Positions 15,676 to 43,879 of a DNA stretch of 64,000 nucleotides are shown here, one piece after another. The position numbers were made by a program, and so were the translations under genes. Under the pieces are notes generated by a model, which made no database searches, was not told the origin of the DNA, and was given only the letters and a program-made list of their open reading frames with translations. Numbering within the stretch: the first letter of the stretch is position 1; each line of letters starts with the position of its first letter. Source of the DNA: Chlorophyllum brunneum (taxonomy: Eukaryota > Basidiomycota > Agaricomycetes > Agaricales > Agaricaceae); contig OY756147.1 in NCBI GenBank assembly GCA_963576785.1, positions 62,001 to 126,000 of the forward strand. The letters run 5' to 3'.

Positions 15676-15969
15676 TGTTACGAACTATAGATAGACCGTT
15701 CATTCCTATCTTGTGCCCGTCACCTCGTGTACTCTCATACTTGTTTTACTTCTCGTTTCACTCCCTGTTTCACCCCTAGAGGCTATGCCTCCCATCTGAC
15801 TCATTTACTCCTCTCTCTTATTATTAGCTATCACCGTTAGTATATAAAGTATAGTAATACTTGATGTATTCCTTACACTTTACTAATCGTATCATCCCTT
15901 CTTCCTTTCTCTACTTCCTTTCCTTTATCCAAAAGCTTACAACCTGAGTCAGAGACTAAGGTCGTAACA
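15676..15969 (+). repeat. Gypsy A1 5' LTR
   Basis: 294 bp with TATATAAAG at 15841 and, about 34 bp downstream, ACACTTTACTAA (15875-15886), the predicted transcript start and partner of the PBS. It carries GTTTCAC motifs, one mutated to GTTTTAC. Confidence 0.95.
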
Positions 15970-15970
15970 T

Positions 15971-15982
15971 TTGGTAAAGTGT
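15971..15982 (+). promoter_or_regulatory. Gypsy A1 primer-binding site, self-complementary type
   Basis: TTGGTAAAGTGT lies one base after the 5' LTR. It is the exact reverse complement of ACACTTTACCAA in the 3' LTR (22030-22041) just below the TATA box; the 5' LTR copy has one C-to-T mismatch. The arrangement equals Tf1/sushi self-priming. Confidence 0.75.
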
Positions 15983-16062
15983 CATTCGACTCACCTTGCA
16001 AGAGAGGTGCCACTATTCGTAACTAGGCTTGGAATAATAGCCTCCGACCAGGACAATAGTAT

Positions 16063-17307
16063 ATGAGCAGCAGTAGCTCATCGAGAACACCGAGAAGACA
16101 CAGAGCTCCGAGACCAACAGACATCCAGGGTTCACCCATTGCAACAGGATCCAAACAATCAACAGAATCAGAAATCCCTGAAGGCCTTAAACGGCAGAAA
16201 TCTGAACACAGTGTAGACGAGAGTACAGCTCTATTTGAAACCGAATTCGACATAGAAGTCGCCGAGAACACATCCGATATAGATATCACCGAGACCTACG
16301 AGAAAGAATCTGAACACAGCACAGACGAGGAACTAGTCCCATCTGAAGAAGAAATCGACACAGAAGTCGCTGACGCCATAGCCAATATAGAAATTGCTGA
16401 GACCCATGGAAACGAACACAGCAAACCAGAAACAGAACCAGAGATGACAGAAGAAATCAACATCCCAAAGAACCTAGCCCCAGAGCCAGGATATTTCAAT
16501 GGAGAAAGAACCAGATTTGATGATTGGTGGAGAGCAATATCCTTATGGTTGATGTTCAACAAGATAAAAGAAGAAGAACAGAAGATAGTAGCAATTCTGG
16601 CAAGAATGAAAGGGGGGCTAGCAGGCCCTTACACCAATACGCAGCTACAAGCCATTCAGAACAAGAAAACACCAGATTGGGATGACTTTACAAAGGAAAT
16701 AGAGGCCACATTTTCCTTGGGAAATAGGAAAGCCATAGCAGAAGGAGAAATCGAGACGTTCAAGCAAGGGAAGAAGAACATGGCAGATTTCCTAATCAAA
16801 TTTGAGGCATTAAAAGCCCAAGCGGGGACAGACGACACCCATGCAATATTCCTCCTCAAACGCCACACCAGAGCAGACATCATCCGAACCATAGTAGGCT
16901 ACCCGACAACCTCCGTCCCAACAACATACAGCAAGTGGAAAACTACAATCCTTGCAGTAGGACAGGGGTATGAAGCAGCGGACATCACCTGAGGAGATGT
17001 CAGAACCACCACCGGAGTTACTTATGGAGGTAGAGGACAACCCATGGAGATAGGAAGACAAAAAGCAGATACTGATCAAAATGGAAAACCGAGGTGCTAC
17101 AACTGCAACCTCTATGGACACATTGCCAAATACTGCAGGAAGAAGACGAAAGTCACATACACCAAGATAACATGTTACAATTGTGGCAAACAGGGCCACA
17201 TCTCGAAGAACTGCTGGGTGCCCAAGAAAGCGCATATCAGAGAGATCAACGAGGACGAGGAACAAGAAATGGAGGAGAAAGAGGATTTTGTCAAAGGCTC
17301 CAAGTAG
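16063..17307 (+). pseudogene. Gypsy A1 gag
   Basis: Structural protein forming the virus-like particle. It has an acidic N-terminus with an imperfect internal duplication (SEHSVDES... and SEHSTDEE..., about 37 residues each), a retrotransposon Gag domain (GYFNGERTRFDDWWRAISLW, FLIKFEALKAQA) and two CCHC zinc knuckles (CYNCNLYGHIAKYC, CYNCGKQGHISKNC). TGA at 16990-16992 interrupts the frame; gypsy A2 has an arginine codon there (DIT-R-GDVRT). Gag ends with TAG 17305-17307. Pol lies in the -1 frame, open from at least 17094, but I see no classical slippery heptamer. Confidence 0.92.
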
Positions 17308-20300
17308 GCGCAAACCTGCGAGCCATTAAACCTAGAGTTTCTGTTTTATCCCACAATAGACGATATGTAATCCCCCAGAAATGAAACTCTACACGCGAAC
17401 TTCTCCTCGACTCAACAATCTAGACAAGAAAAGGATGCAGACCAATTACAACCCTTGTAGACTCCAGATGCACCCACACGTGCATAGCACAACGAACGAT
17501 AGATGAAGAACAGATCCCGACTAAACCCCTGGAGACCCCGATCAGAGTAATCAATGCCGATGGAACAGAAAATAAAAAAGGAGAGATAACGGACAAAGCA
17601 CAACTGGTATTAAACAATGGCAACCACATGGAACAAATCGACGCACTAGTAACACAATTGGAAAGTGCAGACTTATATCTCGGACACAACTGGCTAGTCA
17701 AGCATAACCCGGAAATCGATTGGAACAATCACGTCATACGATTCACCAGATGCCCAGACAATTGCAAAATATCACATAGCAATATATGGTTCAACGAGAG
17801 AATACGGACAGTCAAGGAACACATTGAAGAGAAAAAGGCGGACCGGACGAATGACGAAGATCTACCACCATACCTCCGACGATACACCCACCTATTCAAC
17901 AAGAAAAACTTCGACAAACTACCTGAACACATGGTATGGGACCACGAGATAAATCTGTCCGAAGATGCACCCCCGGTACTACAGTCCAAGGTCTACCCAA
18001 TGACAATAACGGAGAAACAGGAACTACAGAAGTTCCTTGACAAGAATCTTGCCTCAGGACGAATCAGACCATCACAATCCCCCTATGCCACCCCATGTTT
18101 CTTTATACCAAAAAAGGATGGAACAAAACGCCTGGTACAGGATTACAAAAAGCTGAATGAACACACCATCAAGGATAAGATGCCACTCCCACTCATAGGA
18201 GAAGTCCTAGACCGGCTAAAGGAGGCGAAGGTGTTCAACAAGCTTGATATCATTTGGGGATATAACAACGTCAGGATCAGAGACAGGGATGAATGGAAGG
18301 CAGTGTTTGTAACAAACAGTGGATTATTCGAACCTACAGTCATGTTCTTCAGGATGAGCAATTCCCCGGCGACCTTTCAAAGGATGATGAACACGGTATT
18401 TCAGGAAATGTTACATGAGGGAACGCTTGTCAACTACATGGACAATTTTGTCATTCCGGGAACCACACAGGAAGAACTCGAGGAAAGAACAACATGGTTC
18501 TTAGATATTGCAGCCAAGCACCAACTTTACTTCAAATGGTCAAAATGTGTGTTCGATGTGAAGGAAATACCCATATTGGGCTTTATAGTTGGACAAGGCA
18601 GTGTTAAAATGGAGGAAGAGAAGGTGAAAGCAGTAAGAGAATGGCCAACACCCAAATCTGTAAAAGACGTCGAAAAATTCCTGGGTTTTGCAAACTTCTA
18701 CCGACGATTCATACAAGACTTCAGTAACATAGCAACACCTCTACACAAGCTGAAGAAGAAAGATGCACAATGGTCATGGTCAGAATGACAACAACAGGCG
18801 TTTGAGAAGATCAAGGAAAAGATCACGAACAAACCAGTATTAGCAATGCCTCAGGACAAAGGACAATACAGGGTAGAAGTGGATGCGTCAGGATACGGAG
18901 TAGGAGCGGTATTACCATAAAACCAGAATGACCAGTGGCACCCAATCGCCTTTCACTCGAGAACAATGACACTAGCAGAATGAAACTACCAAATCTATAA
19001 CAAAGAACTACTAGCAATCCGAGAAGCAATCAAAACGTGGAGACAATACCTACTTGATGCCGACAAACCATTTGAGATATGGATGGACCACAAGAACTTA
19101 GAATACTTCAGAAAACCACAACAACTCACAGGACAACAGGCAAGATGGCAACTGGAATTACAGGAATATCGCTACACACTAAAACACATACCCGGGAAGA
19201 TGAACACGAAAGCAGATGTGCTATCAAGACTAGCAAAAACAGACACAACCAGAGACAACACAAATATCACGCTATTACCTGACCACCTATTCAATAACAC
19301 TATCACCGAGATCAGACAAATTTGGGAAATATCGGGGGAAGAAGACCTGAAACACCGATTACGAAAGGAGCAAAGAAGAGAAACACAATGGCTGAGAGAA
19401 AAAGAGAAACGACCAGAGGAGATATGGGAAACGGATGGATTACCTATGTTCGAAGGAAGAATATATGTACCACCAAATACTGAGTTACGCCAAGAAATAC
19501 TCCAACAACACCATGACAAAACGGACGTAGGACACCTGGGACAGCACAGAATGATCGAACTCCTCAAAAGGACATATTGGTGGCCACAAATGTGCAATGA
19601 TGTTAAACGATACATCAAGGGATGCGACATATGTCAGTGAAACAAGATACTCCGGACATGACCTACCACACATCTCCATCCACTACCAATACCCACCAGA
19701 CCATGGGAAGAAATATCAATTGACATGATAGGACCACTACCAGAATCAGACGGATATGATGCGATACTTGTCATTGTTGATCATTTCAGCAAAATGATCA
19801 GACTACACGCAGTTAACACCACCCTATCATCCAAAGAGTTAGGAGATATTTATTGTGACGATATATGGGGACAACATGGGATACCCCGCAGGATCATCAG
19901 TGACAGAGGTCCACAATTCGCATCAAAATTCATGGCAGAACTTTGCAGAGCAACCGGCACCCAACGTAACCTATCCACGGCATACCATCCACAAACAGAC
20001 GGTCAGACAGAGTGCATCAACCAGGAGGTCGAGGCATACCTCAGAAACGTAATCAACCATGTGCAGGACAACTGGAAGAAATGGCTCAGCATAGCAGAAT
20101 TCCAGTACAACGATAAAACACATAGTGCCACAGGACATTCACCATTCCAGATAGTATATGGACGACACCCATGGAAAGGGGATATCTCAAACACAGTCAA
20201 GGCACCTGCCATCACGGAGCGAATACAGGAGTTACAGGACATGCGCCAAGAGACGATCAAAATGCTACAACAGAACCAAATGCAAATGGAGAAATGGAAT

Positions 20301-20789
20301 AGCACAAAACCAGAACACGAGTACAAGGCAGGAGACCAAGTTTGGCTCGAAGCAGACAATATTAGGACAACAAGGCCGACAAAAAAACTTGATCACAGGA
20401 GATACGGACCATTCCGGGTAAAAGAGAAAATAGGTGAAACAAGCTACCGACTGGAGCTACCTGAAACATGGGCAATACACGATGTGTTTAACAGCAGACT
20501 CCTCTCCCCCTATCACAAACCCAAGTATGACAGCCAGTGCACTCCACCACCACTGATCCCCGAGATAATCAATGATGAGGAACACTACAAGGTAGATGAA
20601 GTCCGAGGACACTGCACAAAGGGAAAACGAAAACAGTACCTAATACACTGGAAAGGATATACGTCCGAAGAAGATACATGGGAAGATGAAGCAAATCTGG
20701 AAAATGCCAAGAAAGCAGTACAAGAGTTTATGAGCAAGATTTCGAGGATGAAACCTATAAAAAGAGGAGGTAAAAAGCAGCAATTATGA
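17301..20789 (+). pseudogene. Gypsy A1 pol (protease, RT, RNase H, integrase, chromodomain)
   Basis: One frame with stops at 17382, about 17421, 18786, about 18918 (TAA), a TGA near 18980 and 19638. The protease motif reads LVDSRCTHT instead of DSG (A2 keeps LVDSGCTHT). RT has FIPKKDGTKRLVQDYKKLNE and MFFRMSNSPATFQ; its catalytic box is YMDN instead of YMDD, so RT should be dead. RNase H follows (VEVDASGYGVGA, MDHKNLEYF). Integrase has the zinc finger (HHDKTDVGHLGQHR ... CDICQ) and a core with DMIGPLP, SDRGPQFAS and QTDGQTECINQE. The C-terminus is a chromodomain (QYLIHWKGYTSEEDTWE), which in chromoviruses can guide integration to marked chromatin. Most stops are TGA where arginine is expected. 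Confidence 0.93.
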
Positions 20790-20886
20790 ACAACAGACCT
20801 CGCATTCCAAGCAACCACTACACTCAACACATCACTTGCTGTATCCACTTCACCCTCGACTTTGCCAACTATCTTCATAACACACC

Positions 20887-21723
20887 ATGCCTGCCGAACG
20901 CCAACTTACTCCATACCCCTACCTTAAAGAATTCGATGAACTCGTCCCAGAAAGAACCAGCCATGAGGAGCTCGTGGAAGGAGAAACCCTAGTCAACACC
21001 ATGATACTATTGGGTGCAGCAGTGAAAGCAACCCAAGAAGGCACATCTAAAATAATGGATACCCTATCCAACGCCACTCCAAGACTCAACCAGTTTATCA
21101 TCGACAAAGGAAGGAGAGACCAATTGGAGAGACACCTATACGAAATCAACGACAACCTGCAACTTATTGTCATCTCCAATATGCGAGCTTGAATGCACAG
21201 CATCCTCGTAGCCCTAGCCGAACGGCTCAATACGTACAAGTCAAGGAGTACAGACAACTTCTCCCACCATATTGTCAACTGACTACTTGTTAGTAACGAC
21301 CCGTTCCCCATCCAACATCACATCTGTCACAAATGCGAACAAAAGACACAGGAAGCAACAGCTGCCGACCAACTACTTCACCCCAACATTGAAGAAGAAG
21401 TGGCCCATCTACAAACCATCCTCACCACGGTAGTACCCCCCATCACACCTATGACCTTCCACCCACTGCAAGGATATAGCACACTGAAGTCGGAAGGTGA
21501 AAAGGACAACGAATACTGGAGGAGTATAGTGCACAAGCTCTTAGGCAATCACACCAACGATAACACCACATACAACAATCACACCCACTTTCTGTTTAAA
21601 GAAGGACCGCCTCATGCACCCCTCTGGATCGGCTTAAGATGTGTCGACAAAGCACCTCTCATTGGAGGAAACAAGAAGGACTTGGCCAGAGCTCTGGGAG
21701 CTGCCATACCTATGAATGAGTAA
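20887..21723 (+). pseudogene. Gypsy A1 third gene downstream of pol
   Basis: A frame of 279 codons starts at ATG 20887 (MPAERQLTPYPYLKEFDELV), 98 bp after pol, and ends at TAA 21721-21723, 107 bp before the 3' LTR. TGA interrupts at 21190-21192 and near 21281. The C-terminal block YSTLKSEGEKDNEYWRSIVH ... HFLFKEGPPHAPLWIGL aligns with the product at the same place in A2 (YLTLKDGGQFEENYWEEIIH ... IALFRGGQDHAMPPFGL). I see no signal peptide or membrane segment and no known domain. The location is that of env in retroviruses, but envelope features are absent. Function unknown. Confidence 0.75.
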
Positions 21724-21830
21724 ATTTGCATCGCGTCTTCCTGCCTTCCCCAAATTCTGTATGCTTTATTTTACAAAGGACCTTTACAGTAATATGCATC
21801 ATGAGGACATGAAGCTTGAAAGGGAGGTAT

Positions 21831-22124
21831 TGTTACGAACTATAGATAGACCGTTCATTCCTATCTTGCGCCCGTCACCTTGTGTACCCTCATACTTGTT
21901 TCACTTCTCGTTTCACTCCCTGTTTCACCCCTAGAGGCTATGCCTCCCATCTGACTCATTTACTCCTCTCCCTTATTATTAGCTGTTACCACTGGTATAT
22001 AAAGTGTAGTAATACTTGATGTATTCCTTACACTTTACCAATCGTATCATCCCTTCTTCCTTTCTCTACTTCCTTTCCTTTATCCAAAGGCTTGCAACCT
22101 GAGTCAGAGACTAAGGTCGTAACA
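21831..22124 (+). repeat. Gypsy A1 3' LTR
   Basis: 294 bp. It carries three GTTTCAC motifs spaced exactly 12 bp apart (21898, 21910, 21922) and ACACTTTACCAA at 22030-22041. Confidence 0.95.
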
Positions 22125-22486
22125 GTTTCAGTCTCATTATCTATATTCCGTAGTATTTATAGAAAAGAAGTAGTTAGTATAAATAGCCGACTGTATTAGG
22201 AAGTCAAAGCTTAAGCTTTGATCTTCTATAGGGATAGCCTTTTTGATCACCCAAGAAGAGTTTCCATTGACAGTTGCTGTCAATCAATAGAAGATTGCCT
22301 AACCGCTTATTCTCTACTCGCCCTCATCACTTAGAGCTACAAGATAAACAGGATTCCCATTTCTTGGTTGAGTAATGACAGTTTGATAACATTTGCTTAT
22401 CTGGTTACTTGGCTGAGATAGGTATTAAGGCCATACCCTAGAGGTCATATCCTCTTTGATTGCCCTTAGTAGCCAAATCCATAACA

Positions 22487-22605: not shown

Positions 22606-23717
22606 TGTTATGGATTTGGCTACTAAGGGCAATCGAAGAGGATGCAACCTCTAGGGTATGGCCTTAATACCTATCTCAGCCAAGTAACCGGATAAGCAAA
22701 TGTTATCAAACTGTCATTACTCAACCAAGAAATGGGAATCCCATTTATCTCGTAGCTCTGAGTGATGAGAGTGAGTAGAGAATAAGCAGTTAAGTAATCT
22801 TCTATTGATTGACAGCAACTATCAACAGAAACTCTTCTTAGGTGATCAAAAAGGCTATCCCTGTAGAAGATCAAAGCTTAAGCTTTGACTTCCTAATACA
22901 GTCAGCTATTTATACTAACTACTTCTTTTCTATAAATACTACAGAGTATAGATAATGAGACTGAATCATGTTTCACAATGTGAAACTGATAGATATGAAA
23001 CTTCAAGGTGAAACACTACTAAAGATAAATGTGAAACTGATAAAGATGAAACAGCTAAACATAGAGCAAAATGAAACTGATGATGGTGAAACAGATGAGT
23101 GCTTACTCATCCTCAGAGATCTCCGATGATGATGATGGAGATTCATCAGAACAGCCACAGTTGCAAGACACGTAGGTAGAAGATGATGATGACGATAGTG
23201 GTGATGGAAGAACTGCATTCATAGGATGGTTGGAGTCAGATGATAGAGATGACGTAGATGCGATTGGTTCTTTGGAGAGATAGGACTTGGGTAACTCGAC
23301 AAAGGCTCGAGTAGATCACAATAGTGGATGAGGAGAATTGTTGCTGTCACTACTGGGTACGGTGGGTTTGTCATCTGGTGATAAGTCTTTAGGTCACATT
23401 TCTATGCAGTAGATTCCATTGGCAATTTGTTGGTAAATGAGCACTTTGAGCACTGGACCACAAGTGTACATGTAAGGGTGGATGTACTGTATAGTTTCTT
23501 CGGTCATGCTTTCCAACCATTGTTCCAGGTGCCATAGAGGTTGTTCTCGATGGTGCATAAGTAGAGTCCATCAGTGTCACATACATGTAAGTATTTCCAG
23601 GCTAGTCAAAGTAGAGAGTCAATAACAGTGTCGTTGGATCATGGTGGTGGGACAAGTGGTATTGCTTCTGGAAAATTGTCATAACCTCTGATGTAGGTTC
23701 GAGGTTTGGACATAACA
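22606..23717 (-). repeat. B1 3' LTR (D2)
   Basis: 1112 bp. It holds the tail of the third gene (with small deletions), a cluster of TGAAAC motifs (22970-23096), a TATAAATA box and the AAGCTTTGATC start-site region. Confidence 0.93.
22970..23096. promoter_or_regulatory. Cluster of TGAAAC (PRE-like) motifs in D-type LTR
   Basis: Within about 127 bp there are seven TGAAAC hexamers plus one in inverse orientation, including the palindrome GTTTCACAATGTGAAAC (22970-22986). TGAAAC is the core of the pheromone-response element bound by Ste12-type factors. Equivalent clusters occur in the other D LTRs. Confidence 0.6.
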
Positions 23718-25145
23718 TTATTCCCTTTGTTAGTAATGAATTCTATTTTGTTACATTCAATCTTAGGCAGTTGGTAGTAAGGACTATCCTCAGGGAGTTC
23801 TTCTACTCCATATAGTTCGACAGGTCAGTATCTAATGTGATTGGCCACTTCCAACATCTGAGAAGGGATCCTTGTAATGGCCTTTGTCCTGGTAGGTCGA
23901 GGTGGCAGATGGTAAAGGGAGCAAGATGCCGCTTCGGGCCCTGGTGGTGGTAGTTCTAGAGTACCAGTGTCCATTGGAATGGGAAGGCCCGAGCCTAATA
24001 GTACAATAGCTTCGAGTACTTGCTCCATTTCTGGAACTGTGAACACAGCTGATGATCTCATTGAGTCAATTGTATAGTTCTTACATGTCAGGATCCAGCT
24101 GTTGGGTTTGATAAGCCAGAGTGGTAGTTTGGCCATATCATTGATCATAGTTGGGTTGGCTTTGTAGTACAAGTTGAGTATTTCGAGGTTGGGTGCTTTG
24201 TATGGGCTGCCTATGAACTTGTGAAGTTGGGTTAATTGTTGCTGTAGTGTAGGAAATCTGGCAGAGTCTTTTGTTTTCACAGTCATAATACCAGTGATGA
24301 TCTCGGATAGCCCGGTAATAGTTGAGTGGAACTGCAGGTAGTTCATGCTCATATTGAGGTAGATCATGATGTGTAGGGTGGCCTTGGACAGGCATAGGTT
24401 TGACAAGTCTACGCTCCATTCGGGTGTCAGTCTGAACCAGAGTTGATTGATGAGTTGGATTGCCATCATTAGTGGCATCATGGAAAGGAAGGCCTCAAGG
24501 GATTCTCAATGTGGGATATATGGGGCGAGGCTCTGGTGGAGGTTCTTGAGACTGGTCATTGTTTCGAGTGGGTAGTTGGGGAATGTCAGGAGTTGATAGA
24601 GGGCTGCCTTGGCCATGTGCGCTAAGGGTAGTGCTGATTGAGTGACAGAGAAGTTGATAGGAGTGTTGAATGCATTGCAAATCCTCATGTACTCCATTGG
24701 GTAGAGTGTGGCTAGTAAGGATGTCATAGCTTTGTTGTATGGTGTAGGTGTATCGACTAAGCATTTGCATATTATGAAGGCAAGCAGCAAGCAAATTCCT
24801 GTATTCATCGCAATGGGCAACAGATATGTTATCCCCTCGTAGATCAGGGTAGTGATTGGATAGTTGTCTTTTGATAGTGTTTCGAAGTTGTAGGCAGGCG
24901 GTGTCACATGCAGATTCAATATCAAGTAGGGGAGGGATGGTATGCGGCTGTAATCCAATGGGCTGGATAAATTCCTTGTTGTTGAGGGTGATGGAATACT
25001 TGGGCAATAAGTGAAGGATATTATCAAGGTCTGGCAATACAGGCAGTCCATTGATAATGTTGGCAGCAATCTCAGTGGTATTAATAACAGTAGCTGTAGT
25101 GGCTGGTACTGAGGCTGGGTGAGTATTGGAAGCATTGAGAGACAT
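23103..25145 (-). pseudogene. Gypsy B1 third gene, running from pol into the 3' LTR
   Basis: Starts at ATG 25145 (MSLNASNTHPASVPATTAT), eight bases after the pol stop. One frame runs to about 24.24 kb, then continues in a neighbouring frame; the same shift exists in B0, so it is ancestral or programmed. The second part (LHKFIGSPYKAPNLEIL, AKLPLWLIKPNSWILTCKNY, MEQVLEAIVLLGSG) passes TGA 23827-23825, then reads VEELPEDSPYYQLPKIECNK and NKGNNV-MSKPRTY straight over the LTR boundary (23717) into the U3 frame. Stop is TAA 23105-23103. D2 has a 7-bp deletion in the U3 part. Total length is about 680 codons. No known domain is recognised; the tail is Ser/Asp/Glu-rich. The position recalls accessory genes that overlap the 3' LTR in some retroviruses, but no homology is implied. 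Confidence 0.75.
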
Positions 25146-25152
25146 GGGGAGC

Positions 25153-28100
25153 TCAGATGTTGTGAGCTCTTTTATAGGTCTCAAGTATGTTCTTTACATT
25201 TCGGAGGTTTGATGCAGGTTCCCATGAATTTTCGGAAGTGTGGTAGCCTTTCCACTTGATTAGGTATCTGAAACAATTATTTACCCTTTTATGGTGAAGA
25301 ATGGCCTCGACTTCATATTCTTCTTGATCATCAACAAGGAGAGGGAGGGGTTGAGACATGTGTTGTCCATAGATTGTGTTTTTGATTGCAGGGGTAAGGA
25401 GAGAGGCATGAAACTTGTTATAGATCTTCCATGTTTCAGGTAATTTTAGCTGAAACACAATGGGTGAGATCTTCTTGACAATTGTAAAAGGTCCTTCTCT
25501 TCTTTGGATGATTTTCCTATTTGCAAAGTTTATTGGTAGGTGTTTGTTTTCTAGCCAAACTTTATCCCCTTCATTAAAGTTTGGTAACCTATAATTTGCA
25601 GTTTGTTTGGCCATGATTTCACAGGCATGGTTGTGTGCTTCAAGGGCTCAATGTCAAGCATCAGATAGTTTCTTGAGGCAATCCTCAGTGGCAGGGACAT
25701 TTGTTGGTTCCAGAGTAGTGGGAAATGATTTTGGTGCATAGCCATAGAGTAGCTGGAAAGGTGACTCTTTTTGTCCAGCATGGGGGTGGTTGTTATGAGC
25801 AAATTCATAGAGTGAGAGGAACTTTGCCCAATTGTTTGGTTGAGCTGAAGTGGCAAGTGCTAAATATAGCTCAATTTCCTGATTGATCTGTTTGGTTGAT
25901 CCGTTGGTTCGTGGGTGATAGGCTGTTGAATAGGCAGGGTCGATGTTAAGTAGTTTATAGAATTCTTGCATTACTTTGGCAGTAAATTGCAGATCTCGGT
26001 CAGAGATGATTTTGTTAGGTATGCCATATTTGGCAAAGAGGTGGTCAACCAATAGCTGCACAATCTGTTGTGCATTGGCACTTTTGGTAGTTGGCACTAG
26101 AATTATCCCCTTTGATAATCCATGGTCTACTATGGATAAAATACAATCATATCCTTGCAATAGGGGGAGATCAGTGATAACGTCCATTGATATCTGGGAA
26201 AATGGATGGGTTGACTTGGGTGTGGGAATAGGTTGTAGTGGTGGTTTTGTTGGGTGATGGTTAATCTTGAATTGCTGGCATCTCGGACATCCAGCAATAT
26301 ACTTGCAGACATAGTCCTTGATTCCTAGCCAATAGGTATAATCCAATATCTTGGATAGGGTAGCTGCTGCTCCTGGATGGAGGTTTGGTAAGGTGTCATG
26401 GGTGTGTTCAGTGATCCGGTGATTTAATACAGGGTTATTTGGAATGATGACTCGGTTGGCATTGTGTGGGAGATCACCATTGGGTGTCTCATCAAGGTCA
26501 GGGTCGATCATATCATGATGTTGACGTACTTCGTCAAGATCAGCCTCAGTGAGGAGGTGCACTATGGTACCATCGAATATGGTCACTTTCTGGTTGTCTT
26601 TGTCATCAGGAGTATGGTCAGGTTATCGTGATAATGCATCGGCTGGGCCATTCTTTTGGCCGGGTATATGCTTAACCTTCAGCTGAGGTTTGAAGTGTTC
26701 CATATAGGCTGCCCAATGGGCTTGGCATCAGTTAAGGGTTTGGGGTTCCTTGAATTGGGATAAGTTCTTGTGATCACTCCATACAATGAATTCATGTTTG
26801 GCTCCTTCCAAATGGTGGCACCATTCTTTTAAGGCTCATATGATAGCTAGCCATTCTTGCTCTGAGCAGTAGTAGTTTTGTTCTTTCGAGTTAAATACTC
26901 TGGAGATAAAGGCAATTGGGTGCTTTACTCCATTATCATCACGTTGGGTGAGGATGGCTCCTGAGGCATATACAGAAGTGTTAGTTTCAATTTCAAAAGG
27001 TTTGTCAGGATCTGGCACAATTAAGATAGGCTTCTCCATGAAGTGTTTCTTCAGATCTTTGAAGGTGGTTTGGTGCTCATTGGTTCAATAGAATTTAATG
27101 TTCTTGGACATGAAAGAGTTTAGCAGTACAGTATGTCATGCATAATTCTTGATAAATCTTCTGTAGAAGTTACAGAATCCAATAAATTTTCGCACATCAT
27201 GGGTCATTTTGGGTAGTGGCCAATTCTTGATTCCTTCAAGTTTGGCTGCATCCATTTCAATGGATGATAGGGAGTTTACAGCACTGAGGTACTTGAGGCA
27301 TTGTTTCTCGAATTCACATTTCTCAGGCTTGAGAAATAGGTCATGTTCATGAAGTAGTTTTAATACTTCACAGGTAAGGCATCAGAGTTCTTTTTGTGTT
27401 TTGGCATGTATGAGAATATCATCCATGTATACAAGGACTCCTCCTTTATCAATTAAGAGGCAGAATATGTGGTCCATCATGGATTGGAAAGTGGCTGGGG
27501 AGTTGTACATCCCAAAAAACATCACAGTTGGCTCATATAGGCCTTTTGGTGTTCTGAATGTGGCTTTCCATTCATTGCCTTTTTGGATGCAGATATTGTT
27601 GTATCCGGCACATACATCAAGTTTGGTAAACCAATTTGATCCTTTAGGTTTGTTGAGTAGTGATGAAATGAGTGGGATTGGGTATGTATTCTTGATGGTG
27701 TGACTATTGAGATATTGATAGTCTTGACATGGGCGGAGTTTTCCATCTTTCTTCCCTACAAAGAAGAAAGGTGAGACCATAGGTAATTTCAATCATTGAA
27801 TATAACCTTTGGTTAGGTTCTCCTTGATGAATTTATTGAGTTCATTAGTCTCTTGGGGTGATAGTTGATAAGCAGGTTCAGCTTTTGGTTTGAAAGATTC
27901 TTTCATCTCGATTTTGTAATCCCATGGTCAAGTGGGTGGGTATCGTGAAGTAGCTTGTTCACTGAATATATTGAGATAGTCATGAAAATCGGCTGGTACA
28001 ATTTTCAGAGGGTCAGTCTCTTTTGTCTCTCCATATTGCTGGGCAATAAACTGGGAGGCATTGGCTTTGAAGTTTATTTCTTCAAATGTGGCAGGTTCAA

Positions 28101-28600
28101 GGTAGATGTGGTTCACTTGTTTGGCTTTGTTTGCACTATCATCCATGGAGGTGATGAGGCAGTTGAGCTGGGGGTTGTCGATAAATGGGGTTCTCCATTT
28201 CATAGTTTTCCTTGACAAATCTACTTCTGGATCAAATTGCAATAGCCAGGGCATTCCTAAGATTAGGCATAGCATTCCTAGTCCAATGATTCTTGGTTTT
28301 AGAATCATTTGTTGTCCATCTATAGTGAGTCTAAGGATGGCATCATAGGTGGCTTGTCCTTGTCCATTGGTGGTTCCATTGGCATTAAGGATGGTGACTG
28401 ATGTGTCAAGTGGATGGGTTGGTAGGTTCCATTGTTCTACAAGAGATGGGTCGATGTAATTTCTAGCTACTCCTGAATCTAGGAGGGCAAGGTGTTTGGT
28501 AGTTGTGCTAGGTAAGTGGACAGTAGTTGGAACATAGATAGTATTGTTCTTTGGAACAATGTTAATGGTGGTGATTTGTTCAGTATCAGGTTTGCAAGAT
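25153..28600 (-). pseudogene. Gypsy B1 pol (protease, RT, RNase H, integrase, chromodomain)
   Basis: One frame, interrupted mainly by TGA. Protease is ALLDSGVARNYIDPSL. RT has [32 protein letters not shown] and an intact VYMDDILIH box. RNase H has FEIETNTSVYASGAIL and WSDHKNLSQF. Integrase has the zinc motif around HPGAAATLSK ... CPRCQQF, core SMDVITDLP and ISDRDLQF; the third catalytic residue is lysine (STKQINQE) where B0 keeps glutamate. Chromodomain reads EEYEVEAILHHKR and FRYLIKWKGYHTSENSWEP. TGA positions match expected arginines (PPT-stop-PWD, II-stop-ALKEW, DA-stop-H-stop-ALEAH). TGA at FY-stop-TNEH corresponds to a usual tryptophan. Confidence 0.92.
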
Positions 28601-29944
28601 GGCTTGGGTTAGGGGTAGTCATCATGTTGTGGCATTGAATAAGAAATCTGCAGTTTCTTTATAGTTTGAGATCTAAACACAGTAGCTAGTCTCTTCAGAC
28701 AAAAGACTTGATTAGGTCTTCATTGGGATGACTATCTACAATATTGAAGAGTTCTTCTATCTCTTCATCAGAGGGGTCTTCTATTATATTTGTAATTTGG
28801 GTAGACTTGAATTGTTGCTTACTTCAGTCAAAGCATTTGGACTTATAAGCAGCATTCTTTGATATGCTGGCGCAGTTCTTTCCATGGCTTTGTTATGGGC
28901 AATTTCTGGAGAAATGTCCAGCAGATTTGCATGTGAAACATTTTTGCTCATTGTATAACTTCCAGAGTTTGGGTGATAAGATAGCATTGAGTTGGGCTGT
29001 GGCAAGTTTTGTGGCCATGCAGGCAACTTGCTGGATAGTTGCATTCAAATATTCATCATTGTCTGATGATGCTTCTTCCTCAGATTCTTCTCCTTCAACA
29101 TCAGATCCTTCTCCTATTGGGTAAAGATTATTGAGCTGCTGCTCAAGGATGTGGTCGACATCCATGGGACCATAGCCTAGGGGTTTACTGCTTCTTTGAG
29201 TTGGCTGGTAAGGTCTTGCATAAGACATCAAACTTGATGCTTTTGGAGTGTGATATTTCAAGCAATAGGAGGTATGTCGTACTGAGTGACAATGTCCTGT
29301 TGAGCTAAAATTCTCTTGTAGGTGTGCTATTGTTGCTACATTTCACATGGCTGTATACCAAGCATTGATGTCATTTGGGGTGGGGTTCTGACTGTAGACA
29401 AGCCTTTTGTAATACAGATCCAGTCTTTTAATGAAGAACATAATTTTGGTCTCTGCATGGGTGATTCCAGCTTGGGTACACATATTCTTGAATTGCTCAA
29501 CATAGACTGCAGCAGGTCGTCCATTCTAGGTGACATTAGATAGTTGATCGATGGCAACGAGGGTGTCATTTGCTGGCAGGAATAAAGTGTCAAGTTCTGT
29601 GAGGAACTGTTCAATGGTCTAGGTGGGACTGAAGACATTGTTGGTAGTGTGTGAAATGGTGTAGGCTTGTTTCCATTCCCTGGCCAATTCTTCCATACTA
29701 AGGAAGGTGTACATGATCTTGGACTTGTTATTTGGTGGATTGTTGGGCTGTGATGCAAAGTAGATCTGGAGGTTCTGCTTCCAGTTGGGATAGTCAAGCA
29801 GGTCACTGTAGAAAACAGCGGGCTTTGGGAGCTTGGGGTCTGGCATGTTTGATCCTGTGGGTGAGTTTGGTGGCAAGCTTGCTGGGGAGTTTGATGGGGA
29901 CAATTGGTGGGTTTGTGGCTGTTGGGTTGTCCTGAGTGTGATTG

Positions 29945-29962
29945 GAAGTCCTGGTATTCTGG
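29945..29962. repeat. LINE-1 target-site duplication, left copy
   Basis: GAAGTCCTGGTATTCTGG, repeated exactly at 32612-32629 after the poly-A tail. Confidence 0.97.
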
Positions 29963-32611
29963 CCCAATTCTTCCCCTCCCTCAACCACGATCTCCTTATC
30001 GAAATTCTATGAAGACAAGGATTTCCCCCTCAGGTCGCCGCGTTCTTCAACAACTACCTCAAGGAACGCCGCACCACCTACCGGTGGAACAATGAGACTT
30101 CCCCAGAATTTGACGCAGTGGTAGGAGTAGGTTAGGGCTCAGCTCTCAGCCCTATTCTCTCCGCTTTATTCCTCGCCCCCCTCTTACACGTCTTTGAAAC
30201 CCGTATGGAGGAACACCATGACAAGTGGGACTTTGATGTCCTGTCATTCGTCGATGACGGCACTTTAATCGTGCAATCCCCATCTCTGGAGAAGAACGTG
30301 GAAATCCTGCAACACATGTACCGTGAAATGGAGTGGCTCATGAACGAATTCGGCCTGGAAATTGAACACAGCAAGTCCAAGATCTTTCACTTCACACGTG
30401 CAAGACAGGACTCGAATCCCTCAATTGACTTGGGATCCCCGCCGTTCATGGGTCGCAACCCCCTCAAACCGAAGACCCATTGGCAGTACCTCGGCTTTTA
30501 CTTTGACTGGACATTGACCTTCAAAGAACACGTTCGATTCTATTCCGCCAAGGTGACTTCCACCATCAAGGCGATGAAGATGCTGGGAAACTCCATCAGA
30601 GGTCTATCCCCCAGCAACAAGAGACTACTCTACCGTTCGTGTGTTGTACTGGTTGCGACATATGGATTCCGACTATGGTTTCATGATCGATCCCGTACCA
30701 AGGGAACTTGTGAGATCCTCAACAAAATGCAACAAAGGGCGGCACTCTGGATTACTGAGGCCTTCCGTACTTCTCCCACCAGTAGTGTAGAGTCCCTCGC
30801 GGGGCTTATGCCCATCAAACTACATCTCCGAAAGTTGGCCGAATGACAATCATCGAGGCTTCATACATTGGACGATAAACATGCATTGGCAAGATTGACG
30901 AAAGAGTATCATTCTTCCCCCTACTGACTTCACATCAAGAACTTCACGGAGGTTCAGAAGAAGAAGACACTTGGAGCTGTGATGGACTTTTCACGCCCCA
31001 CCCCCGAGACTCGGTATATAGAACATTTTAATTCCGTTTCTAAATCTCTCTGGCCCGGACGTAGGTTACTTGACCATTTTTCTACTAATGTAACTTTTAT
31101 AGGATTCAACCGGGACAACCCTCACCTCTCAAAGACACTTTGGGACGATGTAATGACGAATGCGACGATGGATGCAAAAGCCATCACGATCGGTACGGAC
31201 GGCTCAGTCCATCCCAACCCCAACCCGCTTGCCAGCCAGTTTACGGTGGCAGCCACCATTTGACATCTTGACAGCAGGAGCTCTATTATGAAGAGACTCG
31301 GAGGAACAATGTCGACGGACACAGAACTGGTGGCGCAGTACTTAGGTATCACCAAGGTGCTCGCCACTGCCGACTATGACTAGGTTGAGCACATTCACGT
31401 GTTCACCGACTCCATCGTGGCCTCCTGGCTCCTACTCGACTGTTCACCACATTCATGCCAACAACAGTCCATCCTCACCTCGAAGGCGCTCCTGGCTTGG
31501 TTCAACAAATCAGACCAGCACCACCTTTCGTTTTACCACACGCCGTTGAAATGCAAGTATGGAATACAAAAAGCCACACACGACTGGATCCAAACGGTCG
31601 CCTGGCCTAACCGGGGTCGAAATCACCGAGTACCGAACTCGCTCAACTACCTTTGCAAGAAGTCCGCCAAACACGCCATTCACACATGGCAGGCCATGTT
31701 CAGGTTCAAGAACTACAGCGGTAGCTCCTTCCTCCACCTTCCGGTGCGAGCGAATGGGGCCTCCGCCCTACCGTCGCACATCAAATCCGGTCCATGGATA
31801 CGAGAATGTGGATACCAGCCCCAGCTCTTCGCAAGAGCTTGTCGCACCATACTTTGCCACGCCCCGATTGGAGAATATCGACTACAATTCTTTCCTAACA
31901 AGGATCTTTCGTGCCACCACTGCAACAGTCAAATGGTGCAAACGAGGTCACACATCCTGTATCGTTGCAACAACTTCGATCACCACTTTGGCGTCGACAC
32001 AATCAAGACCCTTGTCAACTTCTTGCGCCGCAACCCCTCTGCATTCAGCTTCCCCCCAGAACCTGATCGCCCTCGTATCCGTGCTGGTTCCATCCCACCG
32101 TTACATCGCCATCAAGTCCAAAGGAGGTTTGGGTCTGCGCCTGCATAGAATCCTCTTCTTTTCTCTTTTTTCTTTTGCTCTCCCGGTTATGGATTTCCAA
32201 TTCATTTCTCTATCTCCCCATTCCCTTGCTCGTCTACTATTTTATATAGTTTTCATTCTACTTCCATCTCTCCCGTGGTGCCCAGATAAATACCCACCCA
32301 CACGCTATGTACCGTTTGATGTTTCCCCTTGTGATTGCGAGTCGGTAGTTTCTCTTCTATCAATCTCTCTCTCTCACTCTCTCTCTTTCCGAATTCCCTT
32401 TCTTCTCACTTTTCGCTAAACATCATAGGTACCAAACATCTCTCTAGTGTACGCGCTAGATGTCAACGAGTCTTGTGGGGTTTGTTTACTTGTAGTTTAC
32501 TTTCCCTTCTCCGAACATTCTGTACATTCTACCTTTGTATGTATGTACATGCAGACTGCGTTCGAGCACCGCTATATAAATTGTTGATTAAAAAAAAAAA
32601 AAAAAAAAAAA
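29963..32611 (+). mobile_element. LINE-1: 5'-truncated non-LTR retrotransposon with poly-A tail
   Basis: 2649 bp, perfect 18-bp TSD, 22-base A tail (32590-32611) and truncation within the RT domain: the hallmarks of target-primed reverse transcription. The coding part is GC-rich compared with surrounding gypsy B. A CT-rich microsatellite lies in the 3' UTR near 32360. Confidence 0.97.
29965..32148 (+). pseudogene. LINE-1 ORF2 remnant (RT, RNase H, zinc knuckle)
   Basis: A single frame to TAG 32146-32148 with internal TGA or TAG codons near 30013, 30133, 30844, 30925, 31261 and 31381. RT motifs: QFFPSLNHDLLIEIL, GSALSPILSALFLAPLL and the catalytic FVDD in LSFVDDGTLIV. RNase H motifs: TIGTDGSVHPNPN, STDTELVAQYLGI and VFTDSIVASW. 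A C-terminal CCHC-like knuckle is CHHCNSQMVQTRSHILYRC. Domain order fits Tad1-type fungal LINEs. N-terminal endonuclease and fingers are missing through 5' truncation. Stops again fall at expected Arg or Gln codons (EIL-stop-RQG; VG-stop-GSALSP with CAG-to-TAG). Confidence 0.9.
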
Positions 32612-32629
32612 GAAGTCCTGGTATTCTGG
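32612..32629. repeat. LINE-1 target-site duplication, right copy
   Basis: Exact copy of 29945-29962. Confidence 0.97.
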
Positions 32630-33947
32630 TCATCTGCTGGTGGGTACTGGGAGGTACCACTGGTTGGGTTGTCTGGTAGCTGGTAGCTGGTAGACTGATA
32701 GTTGGTCGTCTGGCTGGTCTAACTTTGTTGAGCTTCCCTTTCTCTTTGTTCTTGGAGTAGCTGGAGGGCTCCAGCGAGTGGGTTTGGTGAGTTTGATATG
32801 TTGTTGTCGAATTTGTATCAGGGCTCAAGTTCTGGTGTCTGGGGTGGTAGCTCTTCAGAGTGCTCACTTCCATGTTCAGAGTGCTCAGGGTTGTCTGAGT
32901 GTTCAGACTCGGTAGAGATGGTTTTTCTGTACTGTCGGTCGGACTGCTGGGATTGCTGGGATTGCTGTGATTGTTGTCTTGAGGTCCCTTGTTGTGCCCA
33001 GTCAGATTGCATGTAAGCAGGTGTCTGATAAGACTCTGAACTCTGTCTTGGGGCAGGTTCACTGGTTCTAATCCTACTAGCTGTGGTGCTAGTCAAGGGT
33101 CATTCAAAGGGTTAGGAAGTGGTTGAGGTAGACTGTTGGATAGAGGCTGGTGGGGAATATTGAACTGGTTCTGGGTTTTGCCAGGAGGTTCATTGAGTAG
33201 GCTCAACACTGTAAGGCTCTACAGCCTTGGATTGCGATCTAGTCCTGTAGACCGGAGGTGCAGGTAGAGTAGTCTCCTTTTGCTTTGCACAATGTTGGAC
33301 TCGTTCAATCTTGACTGAGTTGCACCTTTATCTCACTGACAATTATTTGCAACTTCTTCCTATACTTCCTGGGAATACACAACAGGTTTCGAGGGCATCC
33401 TCTACTGAGTGCTTTCGCTTTTCAAGGGAATCCGTTACTGGCATAACAGAAACAAGGTGTGATGTATTTTCATGGTTGCTAGTATTGTCTGGCTGACTAG
33501 ACGGCAGCCACTCGGTTTAGCTTCTCTATGGATGGCTTCTCTGTAGCCTAGTAGTTGTGACCTTCTGTTCCTTCTGGGTCTTCTTTCAACTGGAGTACTT
33601 CTCAACAGCAATCCAGAGGCAGGACGCATGGCAGGCAAGTTTCTCTTCTTCTCAAGAAGGAAACCACAAAGTTGGTCAATAGCGTACATTCTATGAGCGG
33701 GTCTTTGTGCTTAGCCCTACTAACTTGAGGGGTACTCCAGGTACTGGCAGGTGCAGTGTGGGTCCTATGTGACTGATAGCAAGTTACGCTCCTATGTGGC
33801 AGATAGGCACTGTGTACAACTCTTCTCAGCTTCCTGTAACAGCGACAATGGCAATGATGTAGGAAGATGTTATCCTTGTTCAGCAACAATGGCAATGATG
33901 CAGATAACACTGGGGTTCTTGTTCTCTATGCTGAAATGACTCAATGG

Positions 33948-33959
33948 AAGCTTTGATCT
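33948..33959 (-). promoter_or_regulatory. Gypsy B1 primer-binding site, self-complementary type
   Basis: On the minus strand AGATCAAAGCTT lies two bases after the 5' LTR. It is the exact complement of AAGCTTTGATCT inside the LTR (34224-34235), about 28 bp below the TATAAATA box (34263-34270). Confidence 0.72.
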
Positions 33960-33961
33960 AT

Positions 33962-35098
33962 TGTTACGGATTCAGCTACTAAGGGCAATCGAAGAGGATG
34001 TGACCTCTAGGGTATGGCCTTAATACCTATCTCAGCCAAGTAACCGGATAAGCAAACATTATCAAACTGTCATTACTTAACCAAGAAATGGGAATCCCAT
34101 TTATCTCGTAGCTCTGAGTGATGAGAGTGAGTAGAGAATAAGCAGTTAAGTAATCTTCTATTGATTGACAGCAACTGCCAACGGAAACTCTTCTTGGGCA
34201 ATCAAGAAGACTATCCCTGTAGAAGATCAAAGCTTAAGCTTTGACTTCCTAATACAGTTGGCTATTTATACTAACTACTTCTTTTCTATAAATACTACAG
34301 AGTATAGATAATGAGACTGAATCATGTTTCACAATGTGAAACTGATAGATATGAAACTTCAAGGTGAAACACTACTAAAGATAAATGTGAAACTGATAAA
34401 GATGAAACAGCTAAACATAGAGCGAAGTGAAACTGATGATGGTGAAATAAATAAGTGCTTACTCATCCTCAGAGATCTCCAATGACAATGATGGAGATTC
34501 ATCAGAACAGCTACAGTCACAAGACACATAGGATGAAGTGGTAGAAGATGATGATGACGACAGTGGTGATGGAAGAACTACATCCATAGGATGGTCGGAG
34601 CCAGATGATAGGGATGATGTAGATGTGATTGGTTCTTTGGAGAGATAGGACTTGAGTGACTTGACAAAGGCTCGAGTAGATCACAATAGTGGATGAGGAG
34701 AATTGTTGCTGTCACTACTGGGTACAGCAGGTTTGTCATCTAGTGATAAGTCTTTAGGTCACATTTTTATGCGGTAGATTCCATCGGCAATTTGTTGGTG
34801 AATGAGCACTTCAAGCACTGGACCACGAGTGTATATGTAAGGGTGGATGTACTGCATAGTTTCTTCGGTGGTTGGTCATGCTTTCCAACCATTGTTTCAG
34901 GTGCCGTAGAGGTTTTTCTCAATGGTGCATAAGTAGAGTCCATCGGTGTCACATATGTATAAGTATGGCACATATTTCCAGGCTAGTCAAAGTAGAGAGT
35001 CAATAACGGTGTCGTTGGATCGTGGTGGTGGGACAAGTGGCATTGCTTCTGGAAACTTGTCGTAATCTCTGACATAGGTTTGAGGTTTGGACATAACA
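33962..35098 (-). repeat. B1 5' LTR (D3)
   Basis: 1137 bp. The U3 reading frame runs 35094-34459 (636 bp). It has a TGAAAC motif cluster, TATA box at 34263-34270, and termini TGTTACGG on the plus strand and TGTTATGTCC on the minus strand. Confidence 0.93.
34459..35094 (-). pseudogene. U3-encoded frame, D3 copy
   Basis: 636 bp, same start (four bases into the LTR) and same C-terminus (EISEDE) as the other copies; interrupted by TGA codons only. Shared blocks include DKFPEAMPL, YLYICDTDGLYLCTIE and LIHQQIADGIY. Confidence 0.7.
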
Positions 35099-41849: not shown

Positions 41850-43879
41850 ATGTCTCTCAATGCTTCCAATACTTACCCAGCCTCAGTACCAGCCACTACA
41901 GCTACTGTTATTAATACCACTGAGATTGCTGCCAACATTATCAATGGACTGCCTGTATTGCCAGACCTTGATAATATCCTTCACTCATTGTCCAAGTATT
42001 CCATCACCCTCAACAACAAAGAATTTATCCAGCCCATTGGATTACAGCTGCATACCATCCCTCCCCTACTTGATATCGAATCTGCATGCAACACCACCTG
42101 TCTACAACTTCGAAACACTATCAAAAGATGACTATCCAATCGCTACCCTGATTTACGAGGGGATAACACATCTGTTGCCCATTGTGATAAATACAGGAAT
42201 TTGCTTGCTGCTTGCCTTCATATTATGCAAATGCTTAGTTGATACACCTATGCCATACAGCAAAGCTATGACATCCTTACTAGCCACACTCTACCCAATG
42301 GAGTACATGAGGATTTGCAATGCATTCAACACTCCTATCAACTTCTCTGTCACTCAATTAGCACTACCCTTAGCACACACAGCCAAGGCAGCCCTTATTG
42401 ACTCCTAATGTTCCCCAACTACCCACTTGAAACAAGGACCAGCCTCAAGAGCCTCCACCAGAGTCTCACCCTGTATATCCCACATTGAGAATCCCTTGAG
42501 GCCTTCCTTTCCATGATGCCACTAATGATGGCAATCTGACTCATCAATCAACTTCAGTTCAGACTGATGCCTGAATAGAGCATAGACTCATTGAACCTGT
42601 GCCTGTCCAAGGCCACCTTGCACATCATAACCTGCCTCAATATGAGCATGAACCATCTGCAGTTCCACTCAACTATTACTGGACTATCCAAGATTGTCAC
42701 TGGTATCATGACTGTGAAAACAAAAGACTTTGCCAGATTTCCTATACTGTAGCAACAATTAACCTGACTCCACAAGTTCATAGGCAGCCCATACAAAGCA
42801 CCCAACCTCGAAATACTCGACTTGTATTACAAAGCTGACCCAACTATGATCAACGATATGGCCAAACAACTACTCTGGCTTATCAAACCCAATGGCTGGA
42901 TCCTGACATGCAAGAACTATACAATTGACTCAATGAGATCATCAGCTATGTTCACAGTTCCAGAAATGGAGCAAGTACTCGAAGCTATTGTACTATTAGG
43001 CTCAGGCCTCCCTACCCCAATGGACACTGGCACTCCAGAACCACTACCACCAGGACCCAAAATGGCATCTCACCCCCTCTACCATCTGCCACCTCGACCT
43101 TACCACCCTACCAGGATGAAGGCCATTACGAGGATCCCTTCTCAGACATTGGAAGCAGCCAATCACATTAGATACTGACCCGTCAAACTATATGGAGTAG
43201 AAGAACTCCCCGAGGACAGTCCTTACTACTGACTGCCCAAGATTGAATGTAACAAAATGGAATTTGTTACTAACAAAAGGAATAATGTTATGTCTGAACC
43301 TCGAACCTATGTCAGAGGTTATAACAATTCCCAGAAGCAATACCACTTGTCCCACCACCACAATCCAATGATGCCATCATCAACTCTCTACTTTGACTAG
43401 CTTGGAAATACACACCATACTTACATGTATGCAACACCAATGGACTCTACCTATGCACCATTGAGAACAACCTCTATGGTGCCTGGAATAATGGTTGGAA
43501 AGCATGACCAACTACCAAAGAAACTATGCAGTACATCCACCCTTACATATACACTCGTGGTCCAGTGCTCGAAGTGCTCATTCACCAACAAATTGCCGAT
43601 GGAATCTATTGCATAGAAATGCAACCTAAAGACTTATCACCAGATGACAAACCCACTGTACCCAGTAGCGACAGTGACGACTCTCCCCATCCACTATTGC
43701 GATCTACTCGAGCCTTTGTCAAGTCACCCAAGTCCTATCTCTCCAAAGAACCAATCACATCTACATCATCCCTGTTTGATAACATTTGCTTATCCAGTTA
43801 CTTGGCTGAGATAGGTATTAAGGCCATACCCTAGAGATCGCATCCTCTTTGATTGCCCTTAGTAGCTGAATCCATAACA
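41850..43879 (+). pseudogene. Gypsy B0 third gene, running into the 3' LTR
   Basis: Starts at ATG 41850 (MSLNASNTYPASVPATTAT), shortly after the pol stop, colinear with B1. The first part ends at TGA 42129-42131. The frame change near 42.75 kb is shared with B1. The distal part passes TGA 43176-43178; 37 codons later it meets the LTR ATG at 43290 in frame (KRNNV-MSEPRTY). In this LTR a 1-bp deletion and a larger internal deletion end the homology, so this copy cannot be complete. Confidence 0.72.
43286..43879 (+). repeat. B0 3' LTR (D4), internally deleted
   Basis: 594 bp from TGTTATGTCTG to CCATAACA. About 500 bp are missing between the middle of the U3 frame and the U5 region. It keeps the unmutated codons CGA at 43700-43702 and 43709-43711. 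Confidence 0.9.

What the first reader, a model, noticed from the sequence alone, without database searches (positions are those of the whole stretch)
23103..25145. Gypsy B third gene reads in frame across the pol-side/LTR boundary into U3
In B1 and again in B0 (41850-43290) a frame downstream of the chromodomain continues, apart from TGA codons, over the internal/LTR junction into a frame that starts four bases inside the LTR (TGTT-ATG). In B0 there are exactly 37 codons between the last internal TGA and the LTR ATG. A retrotransposon gene whose 3' part is carried in the 3' LTR recalls accessory genes overlapping U3 in MMTV and lentiviruses; I know of no such case for a fungal chromovirus.
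Basis: partly seen in the sequence, partly recalled or inferred. Interest (0 to 1): 0.88.

Follow-up and report, generated by a model that had tools for sequence, protein, structure and literature searches.

The report
Retrotransposon gene running into its LTR
In this genome, old copies of one mobile element carry an unknown gene after the polymerase gene that continues into the element's own terminal repeat and bears the marks of past selection, a layout best known from complex retroviruses.

Summary
Confirmed and extended. In the gypsy B chromovirus a frame after the chromodomain crosses the polypurine tract and LTR edge and runs 211 codons into U3, to a TAA kept in 20 of 22 copies at LTR position 640, upstream of a TATAAA near 829. 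It was coding: without CpG codons the nonsynonymous/synonymous ratio in the LTR part is 0.42 (0.31-0.60), like the pol end (0.50); the other forward frames there are 0.99 and 1.28, and the LTR after the TAA is 0.95. In-frame stops are mostly CGA-to-TGA decay (138 of 166 cells at CGA columns). Openness alone is weak evidence. A second frame (ATG 25145) is the constrained one just after pol and avoids TAA/TAG for 1.3 kb, suggesting two overlapping accessory genes, or one gene with a frame switch. The pieces searched have no relatives outside this genome. A sister family has an unrelated post-pol ORF that stops before its LTR. Plant CRM chromoviruses already carry gag-pol into the 3' LTR, so the layout has precedent; a separate U3-crossing gene in such an element was not found in the papers searched. 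None of 26 aligned copies is intact in this frame; expression is untested.

The parts
22606..35098 (-). gypsy B copy B1, outer limits (3' LTR end to 5' LTR start); longer than the about 9.85-kb copy of L046/L011, so probably holds an insertion (not examined)
   Evidence: LTR ends; LTR repeats; length of the other copy
25153..25614 (-). end of pol: Tf2-type SH3 and chromodomain
   Evidence: Pfam PF00385 E 3.2e-15, PF24626 E 2.6e-12
24495..25145 (-). frame 1 ORF ('ORF3'), ATG 7 bases after the pol stop; 216 codons open in B1; in 22 copies no near-fixed stop for 440 codons except at codon 94
   Evidence: selection; stop avoidance
23718..23728 (-). polypurine tract AAAGGGAATAA lying inside ORF4 codons, directly before the LTR
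   Evidence: sequence; copies compared
22606..23717 (-). 3' LTR of B1, TGTTATG...TAACA; its first part (U3) encodes the ORF4 tail
   Evidence: GCAGG target duplication and 95% 5'/3' LTR identity shown in the copy L046/L011
22909..22914 (-). TATAAA downstream of the ORF4 stop, so that the ORF4 tail lies upstream of the putative promoter, in U3
41850..43776 (+). B0 copy of the same region: frame 1 ATG 41850, LTR start 43286, LTR ATG 43290; broken; LTR end not determined

Best explanation
Gypsy B is a chromovirus with at least one accessory protein gene after pol. The last 211 codons of that gene (about a third) lie in U3, so the polypurine tract and the first bases of the LTR are also codons. 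Genomic RNA should start after the TATA box in the 5' LTR and end in the 3' LTR (R-U5-gag-pol-accessory-U3-R), so it carries one complete copy of the gene; reverse transcription copies the tail into both LTRs, and only the copy in the 3' LTR is joined to its 5' part. The layout most likely arose when the LTR start (the polypurine tract) came to lie inside an existing coding region. Upstream, a second frame starting at the first ATG after pol overlaps the LTR-crossing frame; I take them as two overlapping genes, expressed by reinitiation, leaky scanning or a spliced mRNA. The LTR-crossing protein is probably a regulatory or assembly factor (one hydrophobic segment, very acidic serine-rich tail), not an envelope. 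Shown: position, frame, stop, LTR structure, past selection. Inferred: transcript layout, origin, expression route, function.
For: Frame 2 ratio in the LTR part 0.42 (0.31-0.60), first half 0.31 (0.18-0.55), second half 0.52 (0.36-0.74); frames 1 and 3 there 0.99 and 1.28; LTR after the TAA 0.95; pol end 0.50 (CpG codons left out, 22 copies). Codon-position test P 6.6e-6 against 0.86 beyond the stop. No near-fixed stop (19 or more of 22 copies) in frame 2 from 1211 to 3274 (L011 coordinates), against 26 in frame 3 before the LTR. 138 of 166 frame-2 stop cells sit at 14 columns where CGA and CAA are also seen. TAA at 3275 in 20 of 22 copies, TGA in one, a gap in one. Natural stop-free stretches cross the edge in L011 (524 codons) and L021 (318). 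Polypurine tract, TGTTAT...ATAACA ends, GCAGG on both sides, 1137-bp LTR in L046/L011. Of 17 LTRs examined, 15 have TATAAA, 11 of them at LTR 828-829. Frame 1: ratio 0.34 (0.20-0.64) at 1201-1440, and, CpG included, 0.30 at 1201-1320 and 0.43 (0.25-0.79) at 1561-1725; TAA/TAG in frame 1 over 1484-2520: 1.0 against 8.3 expected from synonymous shuffles, 21 of 22 copies at P<=0.05, while TAC/TAT are not depleted (20.9 against 14.8); the depletion ends at the near-fixed TAG at 2521.
Against: None of 26 aligned copies has frame 2 open from start to TAA, so this is past selection, not present function. All copies are one family in one genome, and related, so tests over 22 copies are not 22 independent tests. 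An antisense frame that shares the wobble position also gives 0.46, and is excluded only by its near-fixed stops (20 internal, 9 in the LTR). Openness at the junction alone is not special. The second half of the tail is weak on its own (P 0.11, or 0.045 with singletons dropped). Frame 1 has TGA at codon 94 in 19 of 22 copies, its ratio from 1726 to 2250 is about 1 and over all of 1484-2520 is 0.93 (0.68-1.32), and TAA/TAG are also somewhat rare in frame 1 of the LTR part (4.1 against 7.4), where no frame-1 gene is claimed; so frame 1 may have been shorter, or a frame switch may join it to frame 2. Frame 2 before 1440 shows no constraint (1.25), so the start of the LTR-crossing protein is not settled. 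No RNA or protein data.
Confidence: 0.85

Rival explanations
1. One gene only: translation starts in frame 1 at ATG 25145 and moves by a +1 shift (or a short intron) near codon 80-94 into frame 2, which then runs into the LTR; the downstream part of frame 1 is a relic. This rivals the two-gene reading, not the LTR-crossing itself.
For: Frame 1 constrained and frame 2 not before about 1440; frame 2 constrained after. Frame 1 has TGA at 1480 in 19 of 22 copies, followed by C, and frame 2 is open there.
Against: Frame 1 ratio at 1561-1725 is 0.43 (0.25-0.79), past the stop; frame 1 avoids TAA/TAG up to 2520; two copies have CAA and one TAA at 1480, and CAA beside TGA points to an ancestral CGA.
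Confidence: 0.35
2. The LTR part is non-coding U3 and only looks open because of base composition; the gene ends at or before the LTR.
For: Another frame is as open at the junction; LTR diversity is higher than internal diversity.
Against: Codon-position pattern and ratio in the LTR, which are absent past the TAA.
Confidence: 0.06
3. An envelope-like gene whose 3' end overlaps the LTR.
For: Position after pol; one hydrophobic 19-residue segment (mean hydropathy 2.3).
Against: No Pfam match for the pieces tried (one sub-cutoff DUF5715 hit, E 0.23, in a B1 piece); no hydrophobic segment in the last 111 residues of L009 (maximum 0.43), which are 29% serine and very acidic.
Confidence: 0.07

Closest known systems
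CRM-clade plant chromoviruses and some Beta vulgaris Bingo elements, with gag-pol extending into the 3' LTR (PMC3605345, PMC3059260; passages seen)
   Same: Chromovirus; coding sequence crosses the polypurine tract and runs into the 3' LTR.
   Different: There the ORF is gag-pol itself and in CRM group A the LTR encodes the CR motif. Here pol with its chromodomain ends about 1.4 kb before the LTR and a separate, overlapping gene crosses.
Lentiviral nef and MMTV sag (recalled, no call)
   Same: Separate accessory gene after the other genes whose 3' part lies in U3; in HIV the polypurine tract is inside nef (recalled).
   Different: No Pfam match of the pieces searched to any family; not known to be infectious; no env gene found by Pfam in the pieces scanned; expression unknown.
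Additional ORF3s of bdelloid LTR retrotransposons (PMC5408684, passages) and antisense ORFs of plant Retand elements (PMC11963269, abstract)
   Same: Extra ORFs between pol and the 3' LTR.
   Different: No LTR overlap in what I saw of them; Retand ORFs are antisense; bdelloid ORF3s have recognisable domains or TM features.
Sister chromovirus family A of the same genome (window 15676-22127; L063)
   Same: Also carries an ORF after pol (278 aa from ATG in L063).
   Different: It ends about 108 bases before a 297-base LTR and shows no similarity to the B pieces compared.

Membership tests
Ty3/gypsy chromovirus | RT, integrase and C-terminal chromodomain in pol | tested here: met
   RVT_1 E 1e-20, RVP_2 2.3e-5, Integrase_H2C2 1.5e-14; SH3_Tf2-1 and Chromo
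Ty3/gypsy chromovirus | LTRs with inverted ends, polypurine tract, short target duplication | tested here: met
   TGTTAT...ATAACA, AAAGGGAATAA, GCAGG on both sides in the one copy examined for this, L046/L011
CRM-type chromovirus with gag-pol in the LTR | gag-pol ORF itself crosses into the 3' LTR and encodes its chromodomain or CR motif there | tested here: not met
   pol stops at L011 1193, ORF3/4 begin at 1201/1211, LTR at 2638
Retroviral U3-overlapping accessory gene (nef/sag type), as a layout | separate gene starting upstream of the polypurine tract and ending in U3 before the promoter | tested here: met
   ORF4 stop at LTR 640, TATAAA at LTR 828-829 in 11 of 17 LTRs; the promoter itself is inferred from the TATAAA
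Retroviral U3-overlapping accessory gene (nef/sag type), as a homologue | sequence homology to nef or sag | tested here: not met
   0 Pfam families at E<=1 for L011:1295-2746, for the L021 tail piece (72 aa) and for L009's last 111 residues; PDB: best E 0.93 and 0.81, unrelated names
Retroviral U3-overlapping accessory gene (nef/sag type), as a homologue | expression from a spliced subgenomic mRNA | not testable with these tools
   no RNA data
Env-like third gene | signal peptide, ectodomain, C-terminal transmembrane segment | tested here: inconclusive
   one internal hydrophobic segment, none in the last 111 residues of L009; no signal-peptide or TM predictor run

The most novel reading that the evidence does not exclude
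A fungal-type chromovirus evolved, independently of retroviruses, a pair of overlapping accessory genes after pol, one of which uses the polypurine tract and more than half of the LTR as coding sequence, so that the gene's tail lies just upstream of the promoter in every LTR and each full LTR in the genome carries a piece of a gene.
Probability: 0.5. Interest if true: 0.75.

Novelty: new variant of a known kind. Interest (0 to 1): 0.6.

Why it matters
Accessory genes overlapping U3 and each other are seen as marks of complex retroviruses. Selection on such a layout in a chromodomain retrotransposon would show that it can arise without an infectious lifestyle, and gives a testable case of how LTR borders move into genes. 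It also warns that LTRs and solo LTRs can be miscalled as genes, or real genes cut at the LTR, in fungal annotation.

Tried and rejected
Homologues: L011's 484-residue open piece (of which 35 residues are LTR-encoded) gave none at E<=10 among 4663 word candidates, although the same database returned 3526 relatives of this element's protease/RT; the absence is limited by the five-residue word rule, and the LTR-encoded tail alone was not searched there. One scan of viral contigs with the same piece: no match. PDB: best E 0.93 for that piece and 0.81 for the 72-residue L021 tail piece. Pfam: 0 families at E<=1 for L011's piece, B1's and L015's frame-1 pieces and the L021 and L009 tail pieces; a B1 frame-2 piece had DUF5715 at E 0.23, below its cut-off. 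AlphaFold2: mean pLDDT 33.1 alone and 34.5 with 8 sequences, too poor for a fold search, so none was made. Diverged copies mapped (8 loci, 4 of them counted) gave too few fixed differences. Codon usage against pol did not separate the frames. An old relative with about 50% identity in the pol end (C3, L062) gave no match to the third-gene pieces better than E 0.5. TpA avoidance as the cause of the missing TAA/TAG in frame 1 was rejected because TAC/TAT are not depleted.

Rows dropped: of 44 matches (40 of 265 candidates scored), 40 regions were fetched; 26 were aligned (the rest were shorter than 3550 bases, and L041 was left out); searches used 23 (L018, L022, L027 left out for large gaps) and searches used 22 (L031 left out too). 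L006 was left out of the whole pi table. Ratios include CpG codons and count only codon pairs with one difference.

Full report
Where it is. The window lies in an unnamed 38.9-Mb, 14-contig genome, and the B1 stretch has 44 matches there, a lower bound. The element is a chromovirus: weak, sub-cutoff Ty3-capsid match, protease, RT, integrase zinc finger, SH3 and chromodomain. In one copy (L046 with L011) the LTR is 1137 bp, TGTTAT...ATAACA, 95% identical between its two ends, flanked by GCAGG, with AAAGGGAATAA directly before the 3' LTR. Coordinates below are those of L011: pol stop 1191-1193; ATG of frame 1 at 1201; ATG of frame 2 at 1211; LTR from 2638; LTR ATG 2642; TAA 3275. In B1 these last five are at 25145, 25135, 23717, 23713 and 23105 on the minus strand.

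The observation. In copies without indels the LTR ATG is exactly 477 codons after the frame-2 ATG (positions). Frame 2 has no near-fixed stop (19 or more of 22 copies) between 1211 and 3274, against 26 in frame 3 and 20-26 in each reverse frame before the LTR. Its stops are mostly decay: 138 of 166 stop cells in 22 copies are at 14 columns that also hold CGA, and all 14 also hold CAA, the pattern of CpG deamination on either strand. The other 28 cells are scattered TAA, TAG and TGA. At 3275 there is TAA in 20 of 22, TGA in one and a gap in one. L011 keeps a natural stop-free stretch of 524 codons and L021 one of 318 across the LTR edge. Openness over the edge alone is not diagnostic: of the 30 copies with a recognised junction (of 40), 15 are open for 60 codons or more in the gene frame, but 22 are in frame +1.

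The test. With CpG sites left out, polymorphic sites at frame-2 codon positions 1, 2, 3 are 51/165, 60/188 and 87/161 in the LTR part (P 6.6e-6; 1.8e-4 with singletons dropped), and 118/143, 114/142, 114/142 in the LTR after the TAA (P 0.86). The nonsynonymous/synonymous ratio in the LTR part is 0.42 (0.31-0.60) for frame 2, 0.99 for frame 1 and 1.28 for frame 3; in the LTR beyond the TAA 0.95; at the pol end of the same copies 0.50 (0.35-0.74). The LTR part is thus about as constrained as the end of pol. An antisense frame with the same wobble position also scores 0.46, but has 20 near-fixed stops before and 9 inside the LTR. The first half of the tail carries most of the signal (P 1.3e-6); the serine-rich second half is weaker (P 0.11; 0.045 with singletons dropped).

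A second frame. Just after pol, frame 1 and not frame 2 is constrained: 0.34 against 1.25 at 1201-1440. Frame 1 stays free of near-fixed stops to 2521 except at 1480, where 19 of 22 copies have TGA, 2 CAA and 1 TAA. Keeping the frame-2 protein and shuffling its synonymous codons, 8.3 TAA/TAG are expected in frame 1 over 1484-2520 and 1.0 are seen; TAC/TAT are 20.9 against 14.8, so TpA avoidance does not explain it; frame 3 shows no such depletion (13.6 against 13.8). The depletion holds in three blocks (z -1.9 to -2.1 each) and ends at 2521. Against it: with all three stops counted the effect is smaller (6.9 against 11.8, 12 of 22 copies at P<=0.05), because TGA is not depleted (5.9 against 3.5), which I put down to CGA decay; and in the LTR part, where no frame-1 gene is claimed, TAA/TAG are also somewhat rare (4.1 against 7.4; 5 of 22 copies at P<=0.05). 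The frame-1 ratio, CpG included, is 0.43 (0.25-0.79) at 1561-1725, about 1 from 1726 to 2250 and 0.69 (0.45-1.08) at 2251-2520; nine blocks in three frames were looked at, so single blocks should be read with care. I favour two overlapping genes; a single gene with a frame switch near 1440-1480 is the main rival.

What the protein may be. No Pfam match at E<=1 for the L011 piece or the tail pieces, no PDB relative, no homologue of the L011 piece in the large protein set, no usable fold. The natural stretches show one hydrophobic segment and, in the last 111 residues of L009, all encoded in the LTR, 29% serine with 19 acidic and 5 basic residues. I guess a regulatory or assembly factor; this is inference.

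How it would work. The stop is at LTR position 640; of 17 LTRs examined 15 have TATAAA, 11 of them at 828-829, so the tail is in U3 if this is the promoter. By the standard replication scheme (established knowledge), genomic RNA then holds one full gene and reverse transcription puts the tail into both LTRs; dozens of further matches in the genome begin at the LTR start and hold the tail only.

What is known. Plant CRM chromoviruses carry gag-pol into the 3' LTR, and so do some Bingo elements of Beta vulgaris (PMC3605345, passages; PMC3059260, passages). Extra ORFs between pol and LTR are known in rotifers (PMC5408684, passages) and plants (PMC11963269, abstract; PMC7264820, passages). A survey of LTR elements in fungi says that members usually encode two ORFs, gag and pol (PMC3248453, passages); the fungal chromovirus crapaud is drawn with two (PMC10787394, passages). 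In the seven searches that were answered (listings seen) I found no separate U3-crossing gene in a fungal chromovirus; most subscription papers are not in that library.

Limits. One family in one genome; no copy intact in frame 2 among the 26 aligned; the evidence is of past selection.

Noticed in passing
window 15676-22127 (+), and L063: A second, abundant chromovirus family (many copies with a long open pol frame) also has an ORF after pol, 278 aa from its ATG in L063, ending about 108 bases before a 297-base LTR; no relation to the B pieces compared, and one 93% identical protein (P0121, full length) in the protein database.
   Followed up: partly
window 14897-22486: A B-type LTR appears to be split by insertion of the family A element (LTR parts near 14897-15676 and 22127-22486).
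   Followed up: no
window 26017-29535 and 35314-38832: Inverted repeat of 3519 bases with 100% complementarity between the B1 and B0 copies, which in two other stretches are 97% and 89% complementary; suggests recent duplication or gene conversion.
   Followed up: no
window 7068-14336: Young-looking copia-type element (300-base direct repeats, 99%) with a 1158-codon ORF holding gag and integrase domains and a tandem array of 63-base units at about 9014-9391 inside it.
   Followed up: partly
L011 coordinate 1480 (window 24866-24864 in B1, CAA there): TGA in 19 of 22 copies with CAA (2) or TAA (1) in the rest and no CGA left, unlike the other CGA sites of frame 1 nearby, which keep all three states; either a stop in the source lineage or a frame-switch site.
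   Followed up: partly
L011 coordinates 3175-3195: Several copies differ by 3, 6 or 9 bases in the serine-rich tail tract, although one has 31 extra bases and one lacks 17; mostly frame-keeping length changes in the LTR.
   Followed up: no
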